DNA from: Yersinia massiliensis CCUG 53443
GTDB taxonomy: Bacteria > Pseudomonadota > Gammaproteobacteria > Enterobacterales > Enterobacteriaceae
Assembly: GCF_000312485.1 (NCBI RefSeq)
Contig: NZ_HE997644.1
Span: 480,492 to 544,491, forward strand
Direction: 5' to 3'
DNA: 64,000 nt
Numbering within the stretch: the stretch's first letter is position 1; the number at the start of each line of letters is the position of its first letter. Below, one piece after another: positions 5,611 to 34,977 of this stretch. The notes beneath the pieces are model-generated. The model was not told the origin of the DNA. It was given only the letters and a program-made list of their open reading frames with translations, and did no database searches. The position numbers were made by a program, and so were the translations under genes.

Positions 5611-6447
5611 ATGCAAATAGCAAAAGTCTGCCACACGCTAAAGCGTTCCCCTGCCACCAGCATTGGGCTATTGATTATCTCCTTGCTGGTTTTCATTGCG
5701 ATTTTCGCGCCGTGGATCGCACCGCAAGATCCTAACTGGCAAAACGCCGCGGATCGGCTGCTACCACCGGGCTCTGCTGGGCATTGGCTGGGCACTGATA
5801 GCTATGGCCGCGATATGCTGTCGCGCTTAATTTATGGCACTCGCCCAACATTGGGTTTGGTGCTTTTAGTCACTGTGATCACTCTGCCACTGGGGCTATT
5901 GGTCGGCGTGCTGTCCGGTTATTACGGCGGCTGGCTTGAACGTGTGCTGATGCGCGTGACGGATGTGGTGATGTCGATGCCACGGTTGATATTGGCTTTT
6001 GCCTTTGTGGCAATGCTCGGTCCCGGTTTGATTAATGGCGCATTGGCGTTAGCACTGACCACATGGCCCGCTTATGCCCGTCAGGCACGCGCCGAAATTC
6101 AATTATTACGTAAGAGCGACTATCTGGCAGCAGCCGAAATGATGGGCATCAAAGGATTACGCCTGCTGTGGGGCCATATTTTACCGATGTGTCTCCCCTC
6201 GGCGGTGGTGCGTTTAGCGCTGGATCTGGCGGGTATCATCCTAGCGGCAGCGGGGTTAGGTTTCCTCGGATTAGGCGCACGTCCCCCGATGTCCGAATGG
6301 GGTTCTATGGTCGCGGATGGTATGCAGGTTATTTTCGACCAATGGTGGATCGCCGCCATCCCGGGCTGCGCGATTTTGCTCAGCAGCATGGCATTTAATC
6401 TGTTAGGCGATGGCCTGCGCGATATTTTGGACCCTCACCATGACTGA
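5611..6447 (+). CDS. ABC importer permease, DppC/OppC type
   Basis: 278-residue inner-membrane permease. It has the DppC-type N-terminal domain (segment near residues 18-37, then FAPWIAPQDPNWQN and HWLGTDSYGRDMLSRLIYG), followed by five membrane segments and the EAA-type loop DYLAAAEMMGIKGLRLLWGH near residues 170-189. The C-terminus LLGDGLRDILDPHHD is canonical. Starts 18 bases after the previous stop with a weak SD and overlaps the next gene by 8 bases. Forms the membrane channel with the 4543 gene product. Confidence 0.87.
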   Translation: MQIAKVCHTLKRSPATSIGLLIISLLVFIAIFAPWIAPQDPNWQNAADRLLPPGSAGHWLGTDSYGRDMLSRLIYGTRPTLGLVLLVTVITLPLGLLVGVLSGYYGGWLERVLMRVTDVVMSMPRLILAFAFVAMLGPGLINGALALALTTWPAYARQARAEIQLLRKSDYLAAAEMMGIKGLRLLWGHILPMCLPSAVVRLALDLAGIILAAAGLGFLGLGARPPMSEWGSMVADGMQVIFDQWWIAAIPGCAILLSSMAFNLLGDGLRDILDPHHD

Positions 6448-25737: not shown

Positions 25738-26904
25738 TTAGCTTTGCCACAACAGACGATCTCGTGATGTCAAGGTGTCTGTTGGGAAAGTCGCGAGCAC
25801 TGCCTGATAGCGCTTGGCATCGTCTGGGTAACCCCGAGCCGCTTGTAATAACAATCGCAGTGCGCTGTCATAGTCGATACCGCGTAAATCACGGTAAGGC
25901 CACAGTTCGGGTTCGGCAATGAATGGCAGCAAATAATCAATGCCTTGCTGCACATTGCGCCCATCTTGTACCCGTTCCCAGCGATCAATTTCGACATGTT
26001 CGCCGTAACGGCACAGCAGCAAGTGCGCCTCCAGATTGAAGAGTGAATAGTGGAATGGCACTGTGCGCTCTAGCTCCATCCACTGCTTGCCGTCTTGTGC
26101 AATCTGCGCCGCTAACCGCTGGGTAATGCCTTGCTGAATAATGGTCGAAACCAACCCGCGATCGCCGTAAAACATGGCGTTAACCGCACGCTGAACGTCA
26201 TACCAAGTGCCGTGGTTGTTATGCCAAACATATTCGGAATGGCCCACTTCGCTGTGGAACATCCAGTGGTTGAAGTCGCGGAACCATTGTTGTAATACCG
26301 CCGTGTCTTCGGTATCGAGCAGCTTGGCCGGTAGGATCAACCCGATCGTATCAATCACCATCCACATCAGCCGTGTATCGATTAACCCCGTCCCACGCCC
26401 CGACACAATACCGGGAATGGCCTGGCCATAATTTAGGTGCGGATTCATGCGCGTTTTGGCATCTAAAAACCAGCAGCGAATCTGTTCCGCTGCCACCTGA
26501 GCATAGCGGCTATTACCGGTAAAATAGTAGGCTAGCCCAAGTGTCAGGCAACGATCGCACATCCGCACAATTCGCTGGGTGTCAGTATCGTCATTTTGGC
26601 TTTGTGGATTGGTATGCCCATCGCGGCGCACATAGGGTAATCCGTTAGGCTTACGCGGATTTGGCCACCAATAGGTACCAAAACTGTAGTAATCGTGAAT
26701 GTCACCACTGACAGGCAGCAATGTTTTGTGAGTCACACTCTCTGGTGGCTGATCGCGCAGGGCATCAGCCTCGCTTAATAACCGGCGCAATGCCGGTTGT
26801 AGGGGTGAGAATGGCTGCTGTAAGACCGCTTTCGCCTTGATCAAGCAATCAACATCGAGCGTGTACAGTTTCATGGGTGTCGCGGACGTTTTTATTGGCG
26901 TCAT
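25738..26904 (-). CDS. Alginate-lyase-family protein, cytoplasmic
   Basis: 388 residues from 26904 (MTPIKTSATPMKLYTLDVD); ATGs at 26910 and 26874 are alternatives. No signal peptide is visible from these starts. It carries the alginate_lyase (PF05426-type) hallmarks: DYYSFGTYWWPNPRKPNGLP then YVRRDGHTNP (about 70-100), MNPHLNYGQAIPGI near 167, the catalytic region VWHNNHGTWYDVQ near 247 and ELERTVPFHYSLFNLEAHLL near 300. It parallels the exported protein at 31653-32887. Likely cleaves imported polyuronide oligosaccharides; the substrate may be alginate, glucuronan or another uronate polymer. Last gene of a minus-strand operon with the ABC importer, starting 14 bases after its ATPase. Confidence 0.8.
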   Translation of the reverse strand: MTPIKTSATPMKLYTLDVDCLIKAKAVLQQPFSPLQPALRRLLSEADALRDQPPESVTHKTLLPVSGDIHDYYSFGTYWWPNPRKPNGLPYVRRDGHTNPQSQNDDTDTQRIVRMCDRCLTLGLAYYFTGNSRYAQVAAEQIRCWFLDAKTRMNPHLNYGQAIPGIVSGRGTGLIDTRLMWMVIDTIGLILPAKLLDTEDTAVLQQWFRDFNHWMFHSEVGHSEYVWHNNHGTWYDVQRAVNAMFYGDRGLVSTIIQQGITQRLAAQIAQDGKQWMELERTVPFHYSLFNLEAHLLLCRYGEHVEIDRWERVQDGRNVQQGIDYLLPFIAEPELWPYRDLRGIDYDSALRLLLQAARGYPDDAKRYQAVLATFPTDTLTSRDRLLWQS

Positions 26905-26917
26905 GGGCATGGCTTCC

Positions 26918-28012
26918 TTATGCGGCTTGGCTGGCCACCCGCACGCCAGTGGCGGCATCAAAAATATGGATACCGGCAAGTTTAGGTTGCAGATAGACCG
27001 TTTCGCCTTCATTCACTGCCAAGCGCTGTTTAAATACCGACGTAAAACGGCCACCACCCGTACTGCAAAATAGCTGCATATCCGAGCCGGTATTTTCAAT
27101 CGCCGTAATAGTCGCTTTCAATGCGCTGGCACTGTGGGTGGCATCCACGACATTCACCTGTTCAGGACGAATGGCATACACCACATTTTGCCCATCAGTG
27201 ACTTGCAACCCCGCCGGCAGGGTCAGCAAAGAACCGTCTTCCAGTTGCAGCAGGAACTCTTCGCCTTGTTGCTTTACTGTGCCTTTCAATTGATTGATTT
27301 CCGGCGAGCCGATAAAGCCCGCCACAAACAGATTCGCTGGGCGATCGTAGAGATCGAGTGGCGACCCGACTTGCTCAATGCGCCCTTCGCGTAGCACGAC
27401 GATCATTTGCCCCATGGTCATGGCTTCAATCTGATCATGGGTGACATACACTGACGTGGTTTTTAGCCGCTGATGTAATTCGCGGATCTCACCTCGTACT
27501 TGCGTGCGCAATTTGGCATCCAGATTTGATAATGGCTCATCGAACAAGAACACCTGTGGGCTGCGCACAATTGCGCGCCCCATCGCCACGCGCTGGCGCT
27601 GACCACCAGATAAATCTTTCGGTAAGCGTTCCAGTAGTGCCTGTAAGCCTAATAACTCGGCGGTGGATTCGACTTTTTTATTAATGTCGGCTTTGGACAT
27701 TTTGGCCATTTTCAACGCAAAGCCCATGTTCTCACGTACTGTCATCTGCGGATAAAGGGCATAACTTTGGAACACCATGGCAATGTCACGCATCTTGGGT
27801 TCAACATCCGTCACATCTTTATTATTGATGCCGACGGTGCCGCCAGAGATCTCCTCCAGCCCCGCAATCATACGCAGTAAGGTAGATTTCCCGCAGCCAC
27901 TGGGGCCAACCAACACGCAGAACTCACCGTCAGGGATTTCCAGCGAGACATCGCGGATCACATGGGTGTCACCGTAAGATTTACAGACGTTTTTAAGTAC
28001 AACCGATCCCAT
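26918..28012 (-). CDS. Carbohydrate ABC importer ATPase (MalK/UgpC/MsmX type)
   Basis: 364 residues. Walker A GPSGCGKST (about 36-44), Q-loop VFQSYALYP, signature LSGGQRQRVAMGRAI, Walker B VFLFDEPLSNLD, H-loop VTHDQIEAM. The C-terminal TOBE-like regulatory domain (about 240-360) includes GFIGSPEINQL and YAIRPEQVNV. This ATPase type energises sugar, sugar-alcohol and glycerol-phosphate importers. Genes for two permeases and a binding protein lie upstream in the same operon. Confidence 0.9.
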   Translation of the reverse strand: MGSVVLKNVCKSYGDTHVIRDVSLEIPDGEFCVLVGPSGCGKSTLLRMIAGLEEISGGTVGINNKDVTDVEPKMRDIAMVFQSYALYPQMTVRENMGFALKMAKMSKADINKKVESTAELLGLQALLERLPKDLSGGQRQRVAMGRAIVRSPQVFLFDEPLSNLDAKLRTQVRGEIRELHQRLKTTSVYVTHDQIEAMTMGQMIVVLREGRIEQVGSPLDLYDRPANLFVAGFIGSPEINQLKGTVKQQGEEFLLQLEDGSLLTLPAGLQVTDGQNVVYAIRPEQVNVVDATHSASALKATITAIENTGSDMQLFCSTGGGRFTSVFKQRLAVNEGETVYLQPKLAGIHIFDAATGVRVASQAA

Positions 28013-28023
28013 TTTATTTCTCC

Positions 28024-28863
28024 CTAGCCTTTAACCGCGCCAGACATGATCCCGCGATTGAAATGTTTTTGCAGACCCAGATACACGATGATGCTCGGCA
28101 ACATCGCCAGCAGAGTGATGGCAATAAAGATGTTTGGTGTGATGCTCTCATCGGTACGCAATGTGCCGAGGATCACCGGAATGGTATTCAAACTGTCCTG
28201 ATTCACCACGATCAGCGGCAATAGGTATTGATCCCAAATCATGATGAAGCCGAAGGTGACCACCGTACCCAGTGCCGGTTTGACGAGCGGCAGAATGACG
28301 TGGAAGAAGATTTGCCATTCGCTGGCACCATCAATCCGCGCCGCTTCCTCCAGCTCTTTAGGGATAGCGGCCATAAATTCGGTCAGGACAAAGATCGAGA
28401 AGGCCCAGCCCACCACCGGCAAGATCATGCCCAGATAGCTGTTGTACAGCGAGGCGTCGATCACCGGCAGTTGCCAGTTGATGATCATATACAGCGGGAT
28501 GGCGATTACTTCTTCCGGCAGCATCATGGTCGAGAGAATGACCAAGCTGGTCAGCGAGACGCCAACAAACTTTTTGCGCGCCAGTGCATAAGCCGCTAAT
28601 GCGCTGACCGAGACTTGTAAAACGGTGCCAAAGAACACCACGATGATGGAGTTCAGCAGGTATTGCCAAACACCGATATCCATCCACGCAAAGATGAAGT
28701 TCTCCCATGAGAATTGATTTGGCCAAGCCAACAATTCCCCAGGTTTGACTGGTGCGCCACTGAATGCGGTGGCAATAATGCCCCAGTACGGGCCGACAAA
28801 AACGACGAGTAACAGGCCATAAATGATCCAGCGGCCGATACTGTTCCAACTTTTACTTTTCAT
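28024..28863 (-). CDS. Carbohydrate ABC importer permease (UgpE/MalG type)
   Basis: 279 residues with six predicted membrane segments, the first at about 13-33. The EAA loop ELEEAARIDGASEWQIFFHV then ILPLVKP (about 170-196) is the ATPase coupling site. The C-terminus FNRGIMSGAVKG matches the MalG/UgpE group. Co-transcribed with the permease at 28883-29767 (19-base gap) and the ATPase (11-base gap). Brings the polyuronide oligomer into the cytoplasm if the locus role is right. Confidence 0.9.
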   Translation of the reverse strand: MKSKSWNSIGRWIIYGLLLVVFVGPYWGIIATAFSGAPVKPGELLAWPNQFSWENFIFAWMDIGVWQYLLNSIIVVFFGTVLQVSVSALAAYALARKKFVGVSLTSLVILSTMMLPEEVIAIPLYMIINWQLPVIDASLYNSYLGMILPVVGWAFSIFVLTEFMAAIPKELEEAARIDGASEWQIFFHVILPLVKPALGTVVTFGFIMIWDQYLLPLIVVNQDSLNTIPVILGTLRTDESITPNIFIAITLLAMLPSIIVYLGLQKHFNRGIMSGAVKG

Positions 28864-28882
28864 TGCCAGTCTCCGGATCGGG

Positions 28883-29767
28883 TTAGTATCGGGCGATGCG
28901 TTTCTTCAAGGTGAGATGACAAATCGTCAGCACCACCGTGAAGGTGAATAGCAGGAAGGACACTGCTGATGCATAGCCATAGTCAAACTGCTCAAAGCCC
29001 AGTTTGTAGATATGAGTCATGATCATTTCTGTCGCATTCGATGGGCCGCCGCCCGTGGTGGCATAGACCTCCGCGAAGACGCGGAAACCACGGATAAACG
29101 ACAGCATCAGCACCACTGACAGCGCGGGGATCATTCCCGGCAAGGTGACGTAACGCAGGCGATTCCACCAGTTAGCCCCATCCACGTTAGAGGCGTCATA
29201 TAAGTCGCGACTAATCCCAACCAGCCCCGCAATAAAGATCACCATGTTGTAAGGCACGGCTTTCCAAATATGCAGCAGCATCACCGTCCACAGCGCTTGG
29301 TCGGTATCCGCCAGAAAACCCTGCGCTTCAATACTGAACCACGACAAAATGTGGTTCACCACGCCGTTACTGGTTGGGTTAAATAGAATCCGCCACATTT
29401 CGGCGACGATCGCGGCACTGGTGACGGCGGGCAAGAAGATGGCCGTTCGGATAAAACGCAAATGACGCGCTGGGCCTTCTAATAGCATGGCTAAAAAGAA
29501 GGCGATAAAAGCGGCCACCACCATGGTGACCACCACATAGAGCAGGGTGTTGAAAACCGCAGAATGCAGTGCTTCATCACCCATGGCACGGGAGAAGTTA
29601 TCAAACCCGACCCACTCATTTGGCTGGTTAAAGTTAACCTTGTAAAAACTCATCACCAAGCCTTGCAGCATCGGGATGAATTTAAACCAGGTGAAGATGA
29701 CCAGTGCCGGGGCCAGAAACAGCCACGGAACCAGATTACGTTTTAGTCGGGGGGTTAGCGTTATCAT
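28883..29767 (-). CDS. Carbohydrate ABC importer permease (UgpA/MalF type)
   Basis: 294 residues with six membrane segments, the first LVPWLFLAPALVIFTWFKFI near 11-30. The EAA-type loop is ISRDLYDASNVDGANWWNRL followed by RYVTLPGM (about 184-211). RGFRVFAEVYATTGGGPSNA near 227 is typical of UgpA-like permeases. It starts 7 bases after the binding-protein stop, so the two are one transcript. Confidence 0.9.
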   Translation of the reverse strand: MITLTPRLKRNLVPWLFLAPALVIFTWFKFIPMLQGLVMSFYKVNFNQPNEWVGFDNFSRAMGDEALHSAVFNTLLYVVVTMVVAAFIAFFLAMLLEGPARHLRFIRTAIFLPAVTSAAIVAEMWRILFNPTSNGVVNHILSWFSIEAQGFLADTDQALWTVMLLHIWKAVPYNMVIFIAGLVGISRDLYDASNVDGANWWNRLRYVTLPGMIPALSVVLMLSFIRGFRVFAEVYATTGGGPSNATEMIMTHIYKLGFEQFDYGYASAVSFLLFTFTVVLTICHLTLKKRIARY

Positions 29768-29774
29768 GATTTAC

Positions 29775-31088
29775 TCACTGCCCTAAGACATTCTGTTTGG
29801 CCAACTCATCATTTACTTTCTGATTCACCACTTTTAATTCAGCAGGAATATCACTGTCACAGTTGGCTAAAATACGGTTAAAACCTTCAGCAGTGACCTG
29901 ACGAATTGGCGTCCAGTTAGGTACTTGAGGAATATAGCGGCCATACTCGGCGTATAAATCAGCAAACATTGCCCAGCGAGGGTCGTTATAGACCGCTTTG
30001 GTATCGACCTGTTTGTTAATCGATAAACGCACGACGGGCATATTGTTACTGCCCATGCCCATGCCGATCTGTTGCCCTTCTGGTGAAATCATGAATTCGA
30101 TGAATTGCTGTGCAGCGGCTTTTTTCTGGCTGCTTTTCATCATAAACACGGTGGTGCCTTCAGCCAGTGTTGCCTGCCCTTTTGGCCCCGCCGGTGGTGG
30201 GATCACTTCAAATGCCTCTTTGCCGGGATCTTTATCAAACAAGGCAATGTGATAAGGGCCAGAGAAGAACATACCGCTTTGACCGGAACGGAATGATGGG
30301 ATGGCATCTGCCGTGGTGGCATTAATCGCCCCCGGTTGAACTGTTTTATCGCACACCATGCCACGCATAAAGCTCAGTGTTTCAGTGGCGGCGGGTTCTT
30401 CCAATGATGCTTTGAATTTGCCTTCACCCGCGGGGCGAATAAAGTCACCACCGGCTTGCCAGAGATAGGAGCTGATAAACCAGCTGGCATAACCACGGGT
30501 GGTCGAAGCGGGCAAAATAAAGCCATAAGTGTCATTTTTGCCATTGCCATCAGGGTCATTAAAGGTCATCGCTTTCGCCAAGGTGCTGATGTCTTCCCAG
30601 CTTTTCGGTTGTGCTAAACCGAGCTTTTCACGCCAATCTTTACGGATAAACAAAGCAAAGGTTTGGGCTGATGTGGGCACGCCATAATATTTGCCATCCA
30701 TGTATTGAGCACTTTTCCAAGCGGTATCGAAGATATCTTCTCCACCAATGATATTTTTTGGCTCAATCGGCTCAACAATGCCAAGCTGGACAAACTGCCC
30801 AATGGCGACGGCATCGTTAAAAATCAGGTCGGGTAACGCGTTACCTGCTGCGGCTCGCGCTAGACGTTGTTCAAAGTCGGTTGTGGCATTGAAATATTCA
30901 ATTTTAATGCCTGTTTTCTTCTCAAAAGTTTCCGCTTCGGTCTTATAAATATTTTTTGAATCATTACTGGCGCGGATCCATACCTGCAAAGTTTCTGCTG
31001 CGTGGAGGGAAGGGATCCCCATGGCTAAATAAGTTAACAACAGCAAAGATTTTATTTTTACTTTTGACATTATCATTTTTTTCTTCAT
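29775..31088 (-). CDS. Carbohydrate ABC importer substrate-binding protein (SBP family 1)
   Basis: 437 residues from 31088, supported by GAGGA 8 bases upstream. Signal peptide with positively charged n-region (MKKKMIMSKVKIKS) and hydrophobic LLLLTYLAMGIPSLHA, cleaved before AETLQVW. Family-1 features: WIRASNDSKNIYKTEAETFE, DLIFNDAVAIGQFVQLG, GKYYGVPTSAQTFALFIRKD, and GMFFSGPYHIALF. Binds a sugar or oligosaccharide in the periplasm. First gene of the minus-strand operon, divergent from the exported lyase gene; the shared 564-bp region probably holds common regulation. Confidence 0.9.
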   Translation of the reverse strand: MKKKMIMSKVKIKSLLLLTYLAMGIPSLHAAETLQVWIRASNDSKNIYKTEAETFEKKTGIKIEYFNATTDFEQRLARAAAGNALPDLIFNDAVAIGQFVQLGIVEPIEPKNIIGGEDIFDTAWKSAQYMDGKYYGVPTSAQTFALFIRKDWREKLGLAQPKSWEDISTLAKAMTFNDPDGNGKNDTYGFILPASTTRGYASWFISSYLWQAGGDFIRPAGEGKFKASLEEPAATETLSFMRGMVCDKTVQPGAINATTADAIPSFRSGQSGMFFSGPYHIALFDKDPGKEAFEVIPPPAGPKGQATLAEGTTVFMMKSSQKKAAAQQFIEFMISPEGQQIGMGMGSNNMPVVRLSINKQVDTKAVYNDPRWAMFADLYAEYGRYIPQVPNWTPIRQVTAEGFNRILANCDSDIPAELKVVNQKVNDELAKQNVLGQ

Positions 31089-31390
31089 CTCAGCGTCCTC
31101 GTTGAAATCTAATTTTTTATGAATTTACCCAGATGGTTAAATAACAGAATAAAATCACCAAACACTCGATAACATTAGAACTCAGAGGAAAACAAAAAAC
31201 TACACCACAAAAAATAAAACTTAATTCCATTTTGAATTTTCTGCTTGAGATCACACTTGAAAAATCACCAAAAAAAGACAAAAAGCAATATTATCTATAA
31301 TAATCAAAAAGATAAAATCTTCATTTTAAGAAGTAAAAAATAGATGCAATTATTTAATTCGCCTAAAAAACGTCTAAAACAGAGATTTAA

Positions 31391-31406
31391 TTTGATACCA
31401 GTCACA
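31391..31406 (+). promoter_or_regulatory. Candidate CRP site
   Basis: TTTGA-TACCAG-TCACA fits the CRP core TGTGA-N6-TCACA at 9 of 10 positions. Carbon-catabolite control of a polysaccharide locus is plausible. Confidence 0.5.
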
Positions 31407-31495
31407 GAATAAATCATTTATTCAAAGAGAATTTATAAAGAAGATCCAGATCACAAAAGTGTATAAACTTTGCCCTAGAATTCAAATCCATTCTA

Positions 31496-31514
31496 AATGA
31501 AACGCTGTTCTTTT
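31496..31514 (+). promoter_or_regulatory. Candidate KdgR operator
   Basis: AATGAAACGCTGTTCTTTT agrees with the enterobacterial KdgR box pattern (AATGAAAC-N2-TGTTTCATT) at about 16 of 19 positions; the right half is the weaker. KdgR responds to 2-keto-3-deoxygluconate, an expected product of polyuronide breakdown. Confidence 0.45.
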
Positions 31515-31652
31515 TATTGAAATGACAATATTTCATTACGTAATCTTATTTTTAAAATAATGATTTCATTATTTTCACAGAGATAAGAAAGTTAAATAAA
31601 ACCGAGAATGCTTTATTTTTATTCATGTAAACAATAAAAATTAAGGAAATTA

Positions 31653-32887
31653 ATGATGAAGAATTTGGGTAAAAAAACCTATTACTGGCTATTCTACTGG
31701 GGTCATCTCCCTTTATTTACGCGGCGGAAAGCCATCCATTAATATTAAAAGTTGATGATATAAACTATAGCATTGACCAAGTTAAGCAAAACAACCCGCT
31801 ATACGAAAAATCCTATAAAAATCTGATCACTAAGGCTGATAAAGCCCTGCAAAAACCACTCTATTCCGTCATGGATAAAAGTTTGTTGGCTGCCAGTGGC
31901 GACAAACATGATTATTACAGCTTCCCGCCCTATTGGTGGCCAGACCCTAGCAAGAAAGATGGTATGCCTTATTTGCGCAAAGACGGTGAAACTAATCCTG
32001 ATGCCAATAGTGATGCGACAGATAAAAAACGCATGAACAGTTTCAGTGACGATGTCTATTATCTGGCGCTCGCCTATCGCTTTACGGGTAAGCCTGAATA
32101 CGCGGAAAAAGCACGGGATCAATTGGTCAATTGGTTCGTTAACCCGAATACCCGCATGAACCCGAATCTACAATATGCTCAAGCCATTCCAGGTATCAAT
32201 GAAGGGCGAGGTATCGGTTTAATCGACAGCAGAGCACTGGTAGACGTGATTGATGCCGTCGAACTGATAAGACCGGCCAATGTCCTTAACGAAGCCGATT
32301 ATCAAGCCATCAAACTTTGGTACAAAGATTTCTACCAGTGGATGACCACCAGCCAGAACGGTTTTGAGGAAGATAATTGGCACAATAACCACGGCACCTA
32401 TTTTGATATGCAGGCCGCCGCTTTTGCCTTGTTCAGTGACCAGAAAGCCGCCGCTCAAAAACGTTTGGAAATCACACAGCTGCGCCGTATTCCCTCCCAC
32501 TTTGATATGCAAGGTCGGCAAAATGCGGAACTGGAGCGCACTCGTCCATGGCACTACAGCAATTTCCATTTAGAAGCCTACAACAAGCTGGGCCGCCTAG
32601 GGGAAGTCGCCGACAAAGATATCTGGAACTTTAGCCTCGACGAGCACAGCCTGAAAAAAGGCTATCAATACGTGGCGGGCTTTATCAATACCGACCAAGC
32701 ATGGCCGTATAAAGACTTGGATGGTCTGCAAGATAAAAAAGCACTGACCAATATGATCACTGCCGCCCGAGCCTACCCGTCTGACCCTAATTTCCAACAA
32801 AAGGCGCAATACCTGATAGCCAAGTATCCGGATGCCGTTGAAATCCTGCTCTATCCGATAACACAGCCCGTGATCGTCAAAAAATAA
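31653..32887 (+). pseudogene. Exported alginate-lyase-family protein, frameshifted in the signal peptide
   Basis: Translation from ATG 31653 or 31656 (SD AAGGAA) reads MKNLGKKTYYW and stops at 31740. Shifting by -1 at the seven-A run 31671-31677 gives MKNLGKK then NLLLAILLGSSPFIYA then AESHPLILKV, a perfect signal peptide and mature start, open to 32887. One extra A restores the frame. The mature domain (about 390 residues) has alginate_lyase hallmarks DYYSFPPYWWPDP, MPYLRKDGETNP, MNPNLQYAQAIPGI, NWHNNHGTYFDMQ, and ELERTRPWHYSNFHLEAYN. Internal ATG 31871 has no SD and would remove the export signal and about 50 residues. Inferred role: periplasmic cleavage of polyuronide before import. Either inactivated, phase-variable or a sequencing error. 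Confidence 0.78.
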
Positions 32888-32910: not shown

Positions 32911-34977
32911 ATGAAGCAGTTTACGGATCAGCAGATGGCAGAAATCCGCCAGCGGGTTGTTCAGCGAGCGGAAAATACCGTTCAACGGCAAGGCGACATC
33001 ACACAGCAATACGGAAATACAGTACAGCCGTCAGGGATTATTGCCACGCTGATTGCGGAGAATCAGGTGGTGTTGGACTCAGAAACACGGGTCCCCACCA
33101 CCGGCATCGCCACTTGGAACCATTACTATTATTGCCCTGACCACGGGGTGAAGTTAGTTTGGGATCGCCATTCGCCGACTCAGCATCGTTGCCCCATTGA
33201 CGATCAGCTGTTTAGCGGAGAACCCTATGATGGTGCTTGGTGGCGGGCGCTTAACGGCTTAAATGCCAAAGCCTGTAATCAACTTGGTTTGCTGTGGCAG
33301 CTCACGGGGGAAATACGTTACTTCAATAAAGTGCGGGATATTCTGATCAACTATGCCCGCTACTATCCTGACTATGAAGTCCACGGCGGAATTCCCTACA
33401 ACGGGCCAGGTAAGGCCAACGCGCAAACGCTGTGCGAGGCGAATTGTCTGCTCGATTTTGCTTTGGGCTATGACTTCATTGCGGAGTCGCTGAGCCAAGA
33501 ACAACGTGATTGTATCGCTGGCCGGTTATTGCGCGAGGGTGCTGATTTCCTGATGCAACACCGTACCCGCCAACTGCATAACCATGAAGTTAAAATCAGC
33601 AGCGCTATCGCGGTGATCGGGCTGATCCTTGAGGAAGAGCACTATGTCGAGTTTGCGGTTAATGCTGAGTATGGTCTGCGTTATCAGCTAGAGCATGGGC
33701 TGTTCAGCGAGGGATTATGGTTTGAAGGGTCAGTGCATTATCACTTTTATGCCCTGCAAGGCTTCTGGTCATTTGAAAAGCTCGCTGCGGGTAGCCGTTA
33801 TAGCTTGTTAGCGCTGCCTTATTATCGCGATATGCTCAGTTTCCCGCTAAAACTACTGATGCCCGATGGCACTTTCCCACGCATTAACGATTGTACTGCC
33901 GGACAAGAGCAACTGACTCACGCCCACTTGTATGAGTTTGCATTTAAAATCTATGGCAATGATGAGTATGCTGACGCCTTGCATCATATTTATCGCCAAC
34001 AACCTCGCTTCAACCTAGATGCCCTGCTCTATGGTGTTGAAGAATTGCCCTCCCCGCGGGTTGATATCATCCCAACGGATACGTTGCATGCACCCGATTG
34101 CGGCTTGACCATTTTACGCCAACCGCAATCAGGCCGTGCTTTGTTGATAAAACACAGCCCCTATGGGGGAGAGCATGATCATTATGATCGGCTGAATTTA
34201 ATTCTGTTTGAGCAAGGGCAAGAGATCTTGCCAGATTTAGGCACGACCGGTTATGGCGCGCAGCTACATTATGGTTACTACAAAAACAGCGCAACTCATA
34301 ATACGCTCAGTGTTAACCAAGCCAATCAGCCCCCCGCCGTACCGGTTATCCATAACTGGTATCAATCAGCAAAATTCAGTTGGTTAGATACGGAGGTAGA
34401 TTGGGGAAAAAAAGCCCCTGAGTTAGACAGCCATACTCGTGTCCAATGGGATTGCGATGCTTATCGCGATATAAAATTCCGCCGCCGAATATTGTGGCTA
34501 GAAGATGCGATCATCGATATCAGTAGCATCGTCAATCCACACCAACAAGCGTGCGACTGGACACTACATATCGACGGGATGACGATGGATGCAGCAGGTG
34601 AAAGCATCTCTTTTAGCGAAAGTGGGCCAATGCAGTATTTGCATCAAGTCACCACTAAACCACTTAATGGTGTGCTCCAATGCCATTATCAAACAGCGGC
34701 AAATCCGCTGTCACTCTGGCTCGCCGCAGATGCCACGCTATTCCAAGGGTTAGCACCCGCGAACCCATCGGTGCGAGATATCAGTTATCTGATCTTACGT
34801 TCTCATCAATCCGAATCAGTAATTACCAATGTGTTTGATATGAACAACCCTCAACCGCTAACGAACGTGCAAGTGGACAATGATGGCGAGTTATTGACGA
34901 TCATACTGACCCGTCAACAACAGGTTATGCAGGTCACTATCTCCTTGGTTGATAGCGGTATCCCGTTATTCATTTGA
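32911..34977 (+). CDS. Heparinase II/III-family polysaccharide lyase (PL15-like oligo-uronate lyase)
   Basis: 688 residues, no signal peptide, so cytoplasmic. The start MKQFTDQQMAEIRQ has GAGGA about 11 bases upstream. N-terminal alpha/alpha-toroid (about 60-370: TWNHYYYCPDHGVKLVW, NHEVKISSAIAVIGL, GLWFEGSVHYHFYALQG), then a beta-sandwich heparinase II/III domain with GGEHDHYDRLNLILFEQG and LGTTGYG near 410-450, and SATHNTLSVN. This layout fits PL15 exolytic oligo-alginate or heparin lyases, which release monomeric unsaturated uronate. It follows the exported lyase gene by 23 bases in one operon. Substrate not proven. Confidence 0.83.
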   Translation: MKQFTDQQMAEIRQRVVQRAENTVQRQGDITQQYGNTVQPSGIIATLIAENQVVLDSETRVPTTGIATWNHYYYCPDHGVKLVWDRHSPTQHRCPIDDQLFSGEPYDGAWWRALNGLNAKACNQLGLLWQLTGEIRYFNKVRDILINYARYYPDYEVHGGIPYNGPGKANAQTLCEANCLLDFALGYDFIAESLSQEQRDCIAGRLLREGADFLMQHRTRQLHNHEVKISSAIAVIGLILEEEHYVEFAVNAEYGLRYQLEHGLFSEGLWFEGSVHYHFYALQGFWSFEKLAAGSRYSLLALPYYRDMLSFPLKLLMPDGTFPRINDCTAGQEQLTHAHLYEFAFKIYGNDEYADALHHIYRQQPRFNLDALLYGVEELPSPRVDIIPTDTLHAPDCGLTILRQPQSGRALLIKHSPYGGEHDHYDRLNLILFEQGQEILPDLGTTGYGAQLHYGYYKNSATHNTLSVNQANQPPAVPVIHNWYQSAKFSWLDTEVDWGKKAPELDSHTRVQWDCDAYRDIKFRRRILWLEDAIIDISSIVNPHQQACDWTLHIDGMTMDAAGESISFSESGPMQYLHQVTTKPLNGVLQCHYQTAANPLSLWLAADATLFQGLAPANPSVRDISYLILRSHQSESVITNVFDMNNPQPLTNVQVDNDGELLTIILTRQQQVMQVTISLVDSGIPLFI

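What the first reader, a model, noticed from the sequence alone, without database searches (positions are those of the whole stretch)
31653..31740. Exported lyase is out of frame at an A7 run inside its signal peptide
Starting at 31653 or 31656 the frame closes at 31740. One extra A in the seven-A run (31671-31677) joins MKNLGKK to NLLLAILLGSSPFIYA and the intact lyase domain. Everything downstream is open and conserved, so the lesion is recent, a phase-variable switch, a site of programmed or transcriptional slippage, or a sequencing error.
Basis: seen in the sequence. Interest (0 to 1): 0.7.

Follow-up and report, generated by a model that had tools for sequence, protein, structure and literature searches.

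The report
Probable assembly-error frameshift in lyase gene
A sugar-cutting enzyme gene in a Yersinia draft genome is cut short by a small frame break that its relatives lack, and because the same draft also breaks genes that bacteria normally need, the break is most likely a sequencing or assembly error and otherwise an ordinary recent mutation.

Summary
A ribosome-binding site and a double ATG (31653, 31656) open a 29-codon frame that stops at 31740. The lyase frame (31673-32884) has no ATG, GTG or TTG before 31871 and parts from the first at the A run 31671-31677. In 18 of 18 orthologs from other genomes of the genus the lyase frame is open back to the same start, so among them the break is private. 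Recoding and phase switching lack support. A comparison of part of the genome with G014, the nearest held genome, points to the assembly: 6 of 717 genes compared are interrupted here by 1-2 nt changes, 0 of 713 the other way (Fisher p = 0.03; without the lyase 5 to 0, p = 0.06). The six include ftsH and miaA, found in this genome only in pieces. A/T runs of 6 or more are oftener shorter than longer here (24 to 11), G/C runs the reverse. Best reading: assembly error (about 0.60); next, a real recent loss-of-function indel (about 0.31). Reads were not available, so this is inference. Interest is low.

The parts
31643..31647 (+). Shine-Dalgarno-like AAGGA, 5 nt before ATG 31653 and 8 nt before ATG 31656
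   Evidence: read; GGAAA at this place in 17 of 18 relatives and GGAGA in the other (L016), alignment
31653..31742 (+). short open frame, 29 codons plus stop: start of the lyase gene, closed early
   Evidence: start codon at the place of ATG 31656 in 18 of 18 relatives
31671..31677 (+). run of seven A where the start frame and the lyase frame part
   Evidence: alignment of 19 genomes
31673..32887 (+). lyase frame, open from just after an in-frame stop at 31670-31672; encodes a hydrophobic leader stretch and the lyase domain, stop 32885-32887
31871..32887 (+). longest conventional ORF of the lyase frame (338 aa, PF05426), without the leader
32911..34977 (+). next gene, oligo-alginate-lyase-like protein with a heparinase II/III C-terminal domain, 23 nt after the lyase stop
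29775..31088 (-). divergent sugar ABC transporter solute-binding protein
26918..29767 (-). two ABC permeases (28883-29767, 28024-28863) and an ATPase (26918-28012) of the same cluster
25738..27012 (-). second PF05426 lyase of the cluster, open throughout (mechanical ORF; real start probably inside it)

Best explanation
The frame break is most likely a base-calling or assembly error at a homopolymer in a draft genome. The living strain would then carry an ordinary intact gene for an exported polysaccharide lyase of the PF05426 family, part of a uronate-polymer uptake and degradation cluster. Shown: the break, its absence from 18 relatives, and an excess of small frame breaks in the compared part of this assembly, including in ftsH and miaA. 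Inferred: that these breaks share one cause, that the lyase break belongs with them, and the role of the cluster.
For: In 18 of 18 orthologs the frame is open from the same start, including the closest genome, G014. In the two-way comparison with G014, 6 of 717 genes are interrupted by a 1-2 nt change in G000 and 0 of 713 in G014 (Fisher p = 0.03). The six include ftsH (NCBIfam NF008004; reading closes after 277 of 654 codons) and miaA (TIGR00174; after 181 of 313). A search of the whole own genome shows each only as two pieces; the only other FtsH matches are two weak ones at 34-35% identity. Loss of FtsH is lethal in E. coli (recalled), so at least that break is hard to believe. Three of the six lie in homopolymers of 7-8. 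A/T runs of 6 or more are shorter in G000 in 24 and longer in 11 of 718 compared (binomial p = 0.04). The lyase codons show the same purifying pattern on both branches: 7 synonymous to 1 nonsynonymous on G000 and 7 to 1 on G014, 2 synonymous unplaced, over 386 codons.
Against: No reads or other strain of the species were seen. The lyase itself is one of the six; without it the count is 5 of 716 against 0 of 713 (p = 0.06) and the A/T runs 23 to 11 (p = 0.06). C1:1-400000 shows no 1-2 nt break in G000 among 213 genes compared, so the excess lies in one contig. Three of the six breaks, ftsH and miaA among them, are not in long homopolymers. G/C runs of 6 or more differ the other way (G000 longer in 6, shorter in 1) and A/T runs of 5 show no bias (6 shorter, 9 longer). 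Only one reference genome and about 1.2 Mb of 5.05 Mb were compared. The lyase is not in every genome of the genus, so a real loss is plausible.
Confidence: 0.6

Rival explanations
1. A real, recent loss-of-function indel by replication slippage at the A run. Translation starts at 31653 or 31656 and ends at 31740. No signal peptide and no lyase are made, and the oligo-lyase gene 23 nt downstream may suffer polarity. The cluster's other lyase (25738-27012) stays open.
For: Indels in A runs are common mutations (general knowledge). The gene is not universal in the genus: the orthologous stretch was matched in 19 of 25 genomes, own included. A second lyase is present in the cluster. No further decay is seen, as a recent event would give (7 synonymous, 1 nonsynonymous on the G000 branch).
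Against: It does not explain the broken ftsH and miaA or the 6 to 0 asymmetry.
Confidence: 0.31
2. Phase-variable switch: the A run changes length in the population and turns the secreted lyase on and off.
For: A homopolymer lies early in the gene of a probably exported protein. PMC3711429 (passages) counted A/T runs of 7 or more near frame breaks when looking for phase variation.
Against: The run is shortened or interrupted by substitutions in 8 of 18 relatives, and all 18 are in frame (counted by eye on the alignment), so no tract is kept for switching. The window holds 14 other runs of seven or eight A or T, so the run is not unusual.
Confidence: 0.04
3. Transcriptional or ribosomal slippage at the A run yields some full-length enzyme from the broken gene.
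For: Slippage at A runs is known in enterics: PMC4256274 (passages) reports about 20% at 11 A in Citrobacter rodentium tssM1 and an active site with 9 A in Yersinia pseudotuberculosis tssM3. A small amount of product is possible.
Against: Seven A is shorter than those sites. The classical heptamer A-AAA-AAC (recalled) is present only as letters, in the register of the lyase frame and not of the incoming frame; the incoming register reads U-AAA-AAA. The downstream RNA is not unusually structured (z -1.14 and -1.37). 18 of 18 relatives need no frameshift.
Confidence: 0.05

Closest known systems
Singleton frameshifted genes in bacterial genome surveys (GeneTack, PMC3711429)
   Same: A frame break in one genome while homologs are intact; [quoted passage not shown]
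   Different: No difference was found in what was tested here
Transcriptional slippage at poly-A in Citrobacter rodentium tssM1 and Yersinia pseudotuberculosis tssM3 (PMC4256274)
   Same: A run inside a gene, with a downstream frame open
   Different: Those runs are 11 and 9 A (passages); here 7, and 18 of 18 relatives are in frame
Alginate lyase family PF05426; solved relatives 3nfv and 8bdq
   Same: Downstream ORF matches over nearly the whole domain
   Different: Substrate not tested; the start is out of frame with the domain in this assembly

Membership tests
PF05426 alginate lyase family | profile match above the gathering score | tested here: met
   260.3 bits against 22.2, profile 5-275 of 275
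PF05426 alginate lyase family | lyase activity on alginate or another uronate polymer | not testable with these tools
   sequence only
Programmed -1 ribosomal frameshift site | slippery heptamer X-XXY-YYZ in the incoming frame | tested here: not met
   incoming register reads U-AAA-AAA then ACC; the rule itself is recalled
Programmed -1 ribosomal frameshift site | downstream stimulatory RNA structure | tested here: inconclusive
   z -1.14 and -1.37; 25 and 16 of 200 shuffles fold as well; pseudoknots not tested
Programmed recoding or transcriptional slippage | the frame break is conserved among orthologs | tested here: not met
   18 of 18 orthologs from other genomes of the genus are in frame
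Phase-variable contingency gene | repeat tract kept among orthologs | tested here: not met
   tract shortened or interrupted in 8 of 18 relatives
Phase-variable contingency gene | tract length varies within a strain | not testable with these tools
   one assembly per species held, no reads
Assembly or sequencing error | excess of small frame breaks in the assembly, including genes thought indispensable | tested here: met
   6 of 717 against 0 of 713 (5 of 716 without the lyase, p = 0.06); ftsH and miaA found only in pieces
Assembly or sequencing error | raw reads disagree with the assembly | not testable with these tools
   no reads held

The most novel reading that the evidence does not exclude
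The lesion is real, and low-level slippage of RNA polymerase at the seven-A run keeps a small supply of exported lyase, so the gene works as a low-output or bet-hedging secretion switch in one Yersinia lineage.
Probability: 0.04. Interest if true: 0.45.

Novelty: not a real feature. Interest (0 to 1): 0.1.

Why it matters
As biology it matters little. As a caution it is useful: this draft carries several small frame breaks, two of them in housekeeping genes, so apparent pseudogenes in this genome, especially in this contig, should not be read as gene loss or as recoding without reads. If the lesion were real and leaky it would be a small example of slippage-controlled secretion.

Tried and rejected
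Alternative downstream start: no ATG, GTG or TTG in the lyase frame between 31673 and 31870. ATG 31871 would drop the leader, and by eye I saw no Shine-Dalgarno-like sequence before it. In 18 of 18 relatives the frame reaches the upstream start, so a start at 31871 is unlikely to be the native one.

Canonical -1 frameshift: register wrong and structure unremarkable. Promoter scan of 31089-31870 found 4 promoter-like sites, no more than shuffles give (mean 4.0), and one terminator-like site at 31090-31105 (shuffle mean 0.4).

Gap lists of the first script and the looser criterion (15 flagged in G000, 17 in G014) were mixed with 5' ends of mechanical ORFs. The stricter criterion replaced them. 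Its flagged rows were as follows. G000, C2: 7. I dropped one, a 163-aa ORF at 90% identity with several indels. G000, C1:1-400000: 3 (one 4-nt deletion, two without a frame-changing indel), not counted as 1-2 nt breaks. G014 against C2: 3, not counted (an ORF antisense to a gene already listed, one 14-nt difference, one without a frame-changing indel). G014 against C1: 0. Counting every flagged row instead would give 10 of 717 against 3 of 713.

The alignment mixed orientations and is not used. The longest-A-run list at the end counts neighbouring A runs and misplaces one truncated locus; I used the alignment itself. Paper searches: 5 listings; Yersinia with alginate lyase: 85 papers, 15 listings seen, none read; PL38 terms: 61 papers, 8 listings seen, none read; 25 papers, 8 listings seen; 12 papers, 8 listings seen; no statement on FtsH in Yersinia taken from it. 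Of PMC3711429, PMC4256274 and PMC5009743 I saw passages only.

Full report
What is there. The region between a divergent sugar-binding protein gene (29775-31088, minus strand) and the lyase gene holds a Shine-Dalgarno-like AAGGA (31643-31647) and two ATG codons (31653, 31656). The frame from the first runs 29 codons and stops at 31740-31742. The frame that encodes the lyase is in another register. It has a stop at 31670-31672, is open from 31673 to 32884, and has no ATG, GTG or TTG until 31871. The two registers part at the seven-A run 31671-31677.

What the gene is. The ORF from 31871 is a PF05426 alginate-lyase-family domain (E 2.9e-77), with solved relatives 3nfv and 8bdq. The open frame before it carries a hydrophobic stretch like that of a signal peptide (my reading of the residues, no signal-peptide program was run). 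The next gene, 32911-34977, resembles oligo-alginate lyases but lies far below the NCBIfam cut-off (89.7 against 1400 bits; solved relatives). Divergent from them lie a binding protein, two permeases and an ATPase of a sugar ABC transporter, and a second PF05426 lyase. Degradation and uptake of a uronate polymer is the likely role of the cluster; this is inference from families.

Relatives. Of 25 genomes of the genus searched, own included, 21 had a match; 19 of these, own included, hold the orthologous stretch (loci L002-L020), and two hold only weak matches. In 18 of the 18 other genomes the lyase frame is open upstream and has a start codon at the position of the second ATG (alignment). The scan of named genomes gave 52 loci, ten of them from Yersinia species (these overlap with the unnamed set), all ten with the leader in frame. 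So among the genomes seen the break is private to the window's genome. An uninterrupted A run spans the site in 10 of the 18; in 8 it is shortened or interrupted by substitutions, always in frame (counted by eye). Selection is therefore not keeping the tract.

Is the assembly sound? The window's genome is a draft of 22 contigs with N gaps (five in contig C2, one of them ending just before the window). I compared contig C2 (792,866 nt) and the first 400 kb of C1, about 1.2 of 5.05 Mb, with the matching parts of G014, the nearest held genome at this locus, gene by gene in both directions. Counting genes of 150 aa or more that have a full-length partner but whose partner is broken by a 1-2 nt change, G000 has 6 of 717 (6 of 504 in C2, 0 of 213 in C1) and G014 has 0 of 713 (Fisher p = 0.03). 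Because the lyase drew me there, it should be left out of an unbiased count: 5 of 716 against 0 of 713, p = 0.06. The rows flagged but not counted are given under Tried and rejected. The six are the lyase, ftsH, miaA, a C39-peptidase ABC exporter, a glycyl-radical-enzyme activase and a 361-aa ORF without a family match. FtsH and MiaA each occur in the whole own genome only as two pieces, apart from two weak FtsH matches at 34-35% identity. FtsH is indispensable in E. coli (recalled, not established here for Yersinia). A genome that seems to lack it most likely contains errors.

Homopolymers. Of 718 A/T runs of 6 or more (the longer of the two genomes), G000 is shorter in 24 and longer in 11 (binomial p = 0.04; without the lyase run 23 to 11, p = 0.06). 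At 8 or more it is shorter in 7 and longer in 1 of 37 (p = 0.07; without the lyase run 6 to 1, p = 0.13). A/T runs of 5 show no bias (6 shorter, 9 longer), and G/C runs of 6 or more go the other way (longer in 6, shorter in 1), so the picture is not pure undercalling. Three of the six gene breaks are in runs of 7-8, three are not.

Other readings. The lyase codons of G000 and G014 differ by 7 synonymous and 1 nonsynonymous changes on each branch, placed by which codon is commoner in 17 other genomes, plus 2 synonymous that could not be placed, over 386 codons. Any real lesion is therefore too recent to have left visible decay. Recoding fails on register and conservation, and RNA structure gives it no support (z -1.14, -1.37). 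The published poly-A slippage sites that I saw are longer, 9 and 11 A (PMC4256274, passages). PMC3711429 (passages) says singleton frame breaks are likely indel mutations or sequencing errors.

Verdict. A lyase gene intact in 18 of 18 relatives, shown broken in one draft assembly. Assembly error about 0.60, real recent indel about 0.31, slippage about 0.05, phase variation about 0.04. These are judgements, not computed values.

Noticed in passing
own genome C2:544136-546096 (0.4 kb before to 1.6 kb past the window's end): ftsH is split into two pieces by a one-base frame change and no second full copy was found in the genome: probable assembly error.
   Followed up: yes
own genome C2:596664-597601: miaA is split in the same way, with no second copy found.
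   Followed up: yes
own genome C2:114705-116860, 131456-132540, 294306-295269: Three more genes interrupted by 1-2 nt relative to G014: C39-peptidase ABC exporter, 361-aa ORF without family match, glycyl-radical activase.
   Followed up: partly
L077 around 5770-5860 (Vibrio maritimus draft): The homologous lyase leader is also out of frame in a single draft genome, at a G run, while two relatives are in frame.
   Followed up: partly
L074 around 6001-6130 (Kluyvera genomosp. 3): Frame break inside the body of the homologous lyase, absent from two relatives.
   Followed up: partly
G014 C1:4210989-4214490: The counterpart of a 1171-aa helicase-like gene of G000 (C2:461993-465508) is interrupted in G014 by a 14-nt difference.
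   Followed up: no
25738-27012: Second PF05426 lyase; its mechanical ORF overlaps the end of the ATPase gene, so the true start is probably an inner ATG and the protein probably cytoplasmic (inference).
   Followed up: no
window position 1: The window begins directly after a 369-nt N gap of the scaffold.
   Followed up: no
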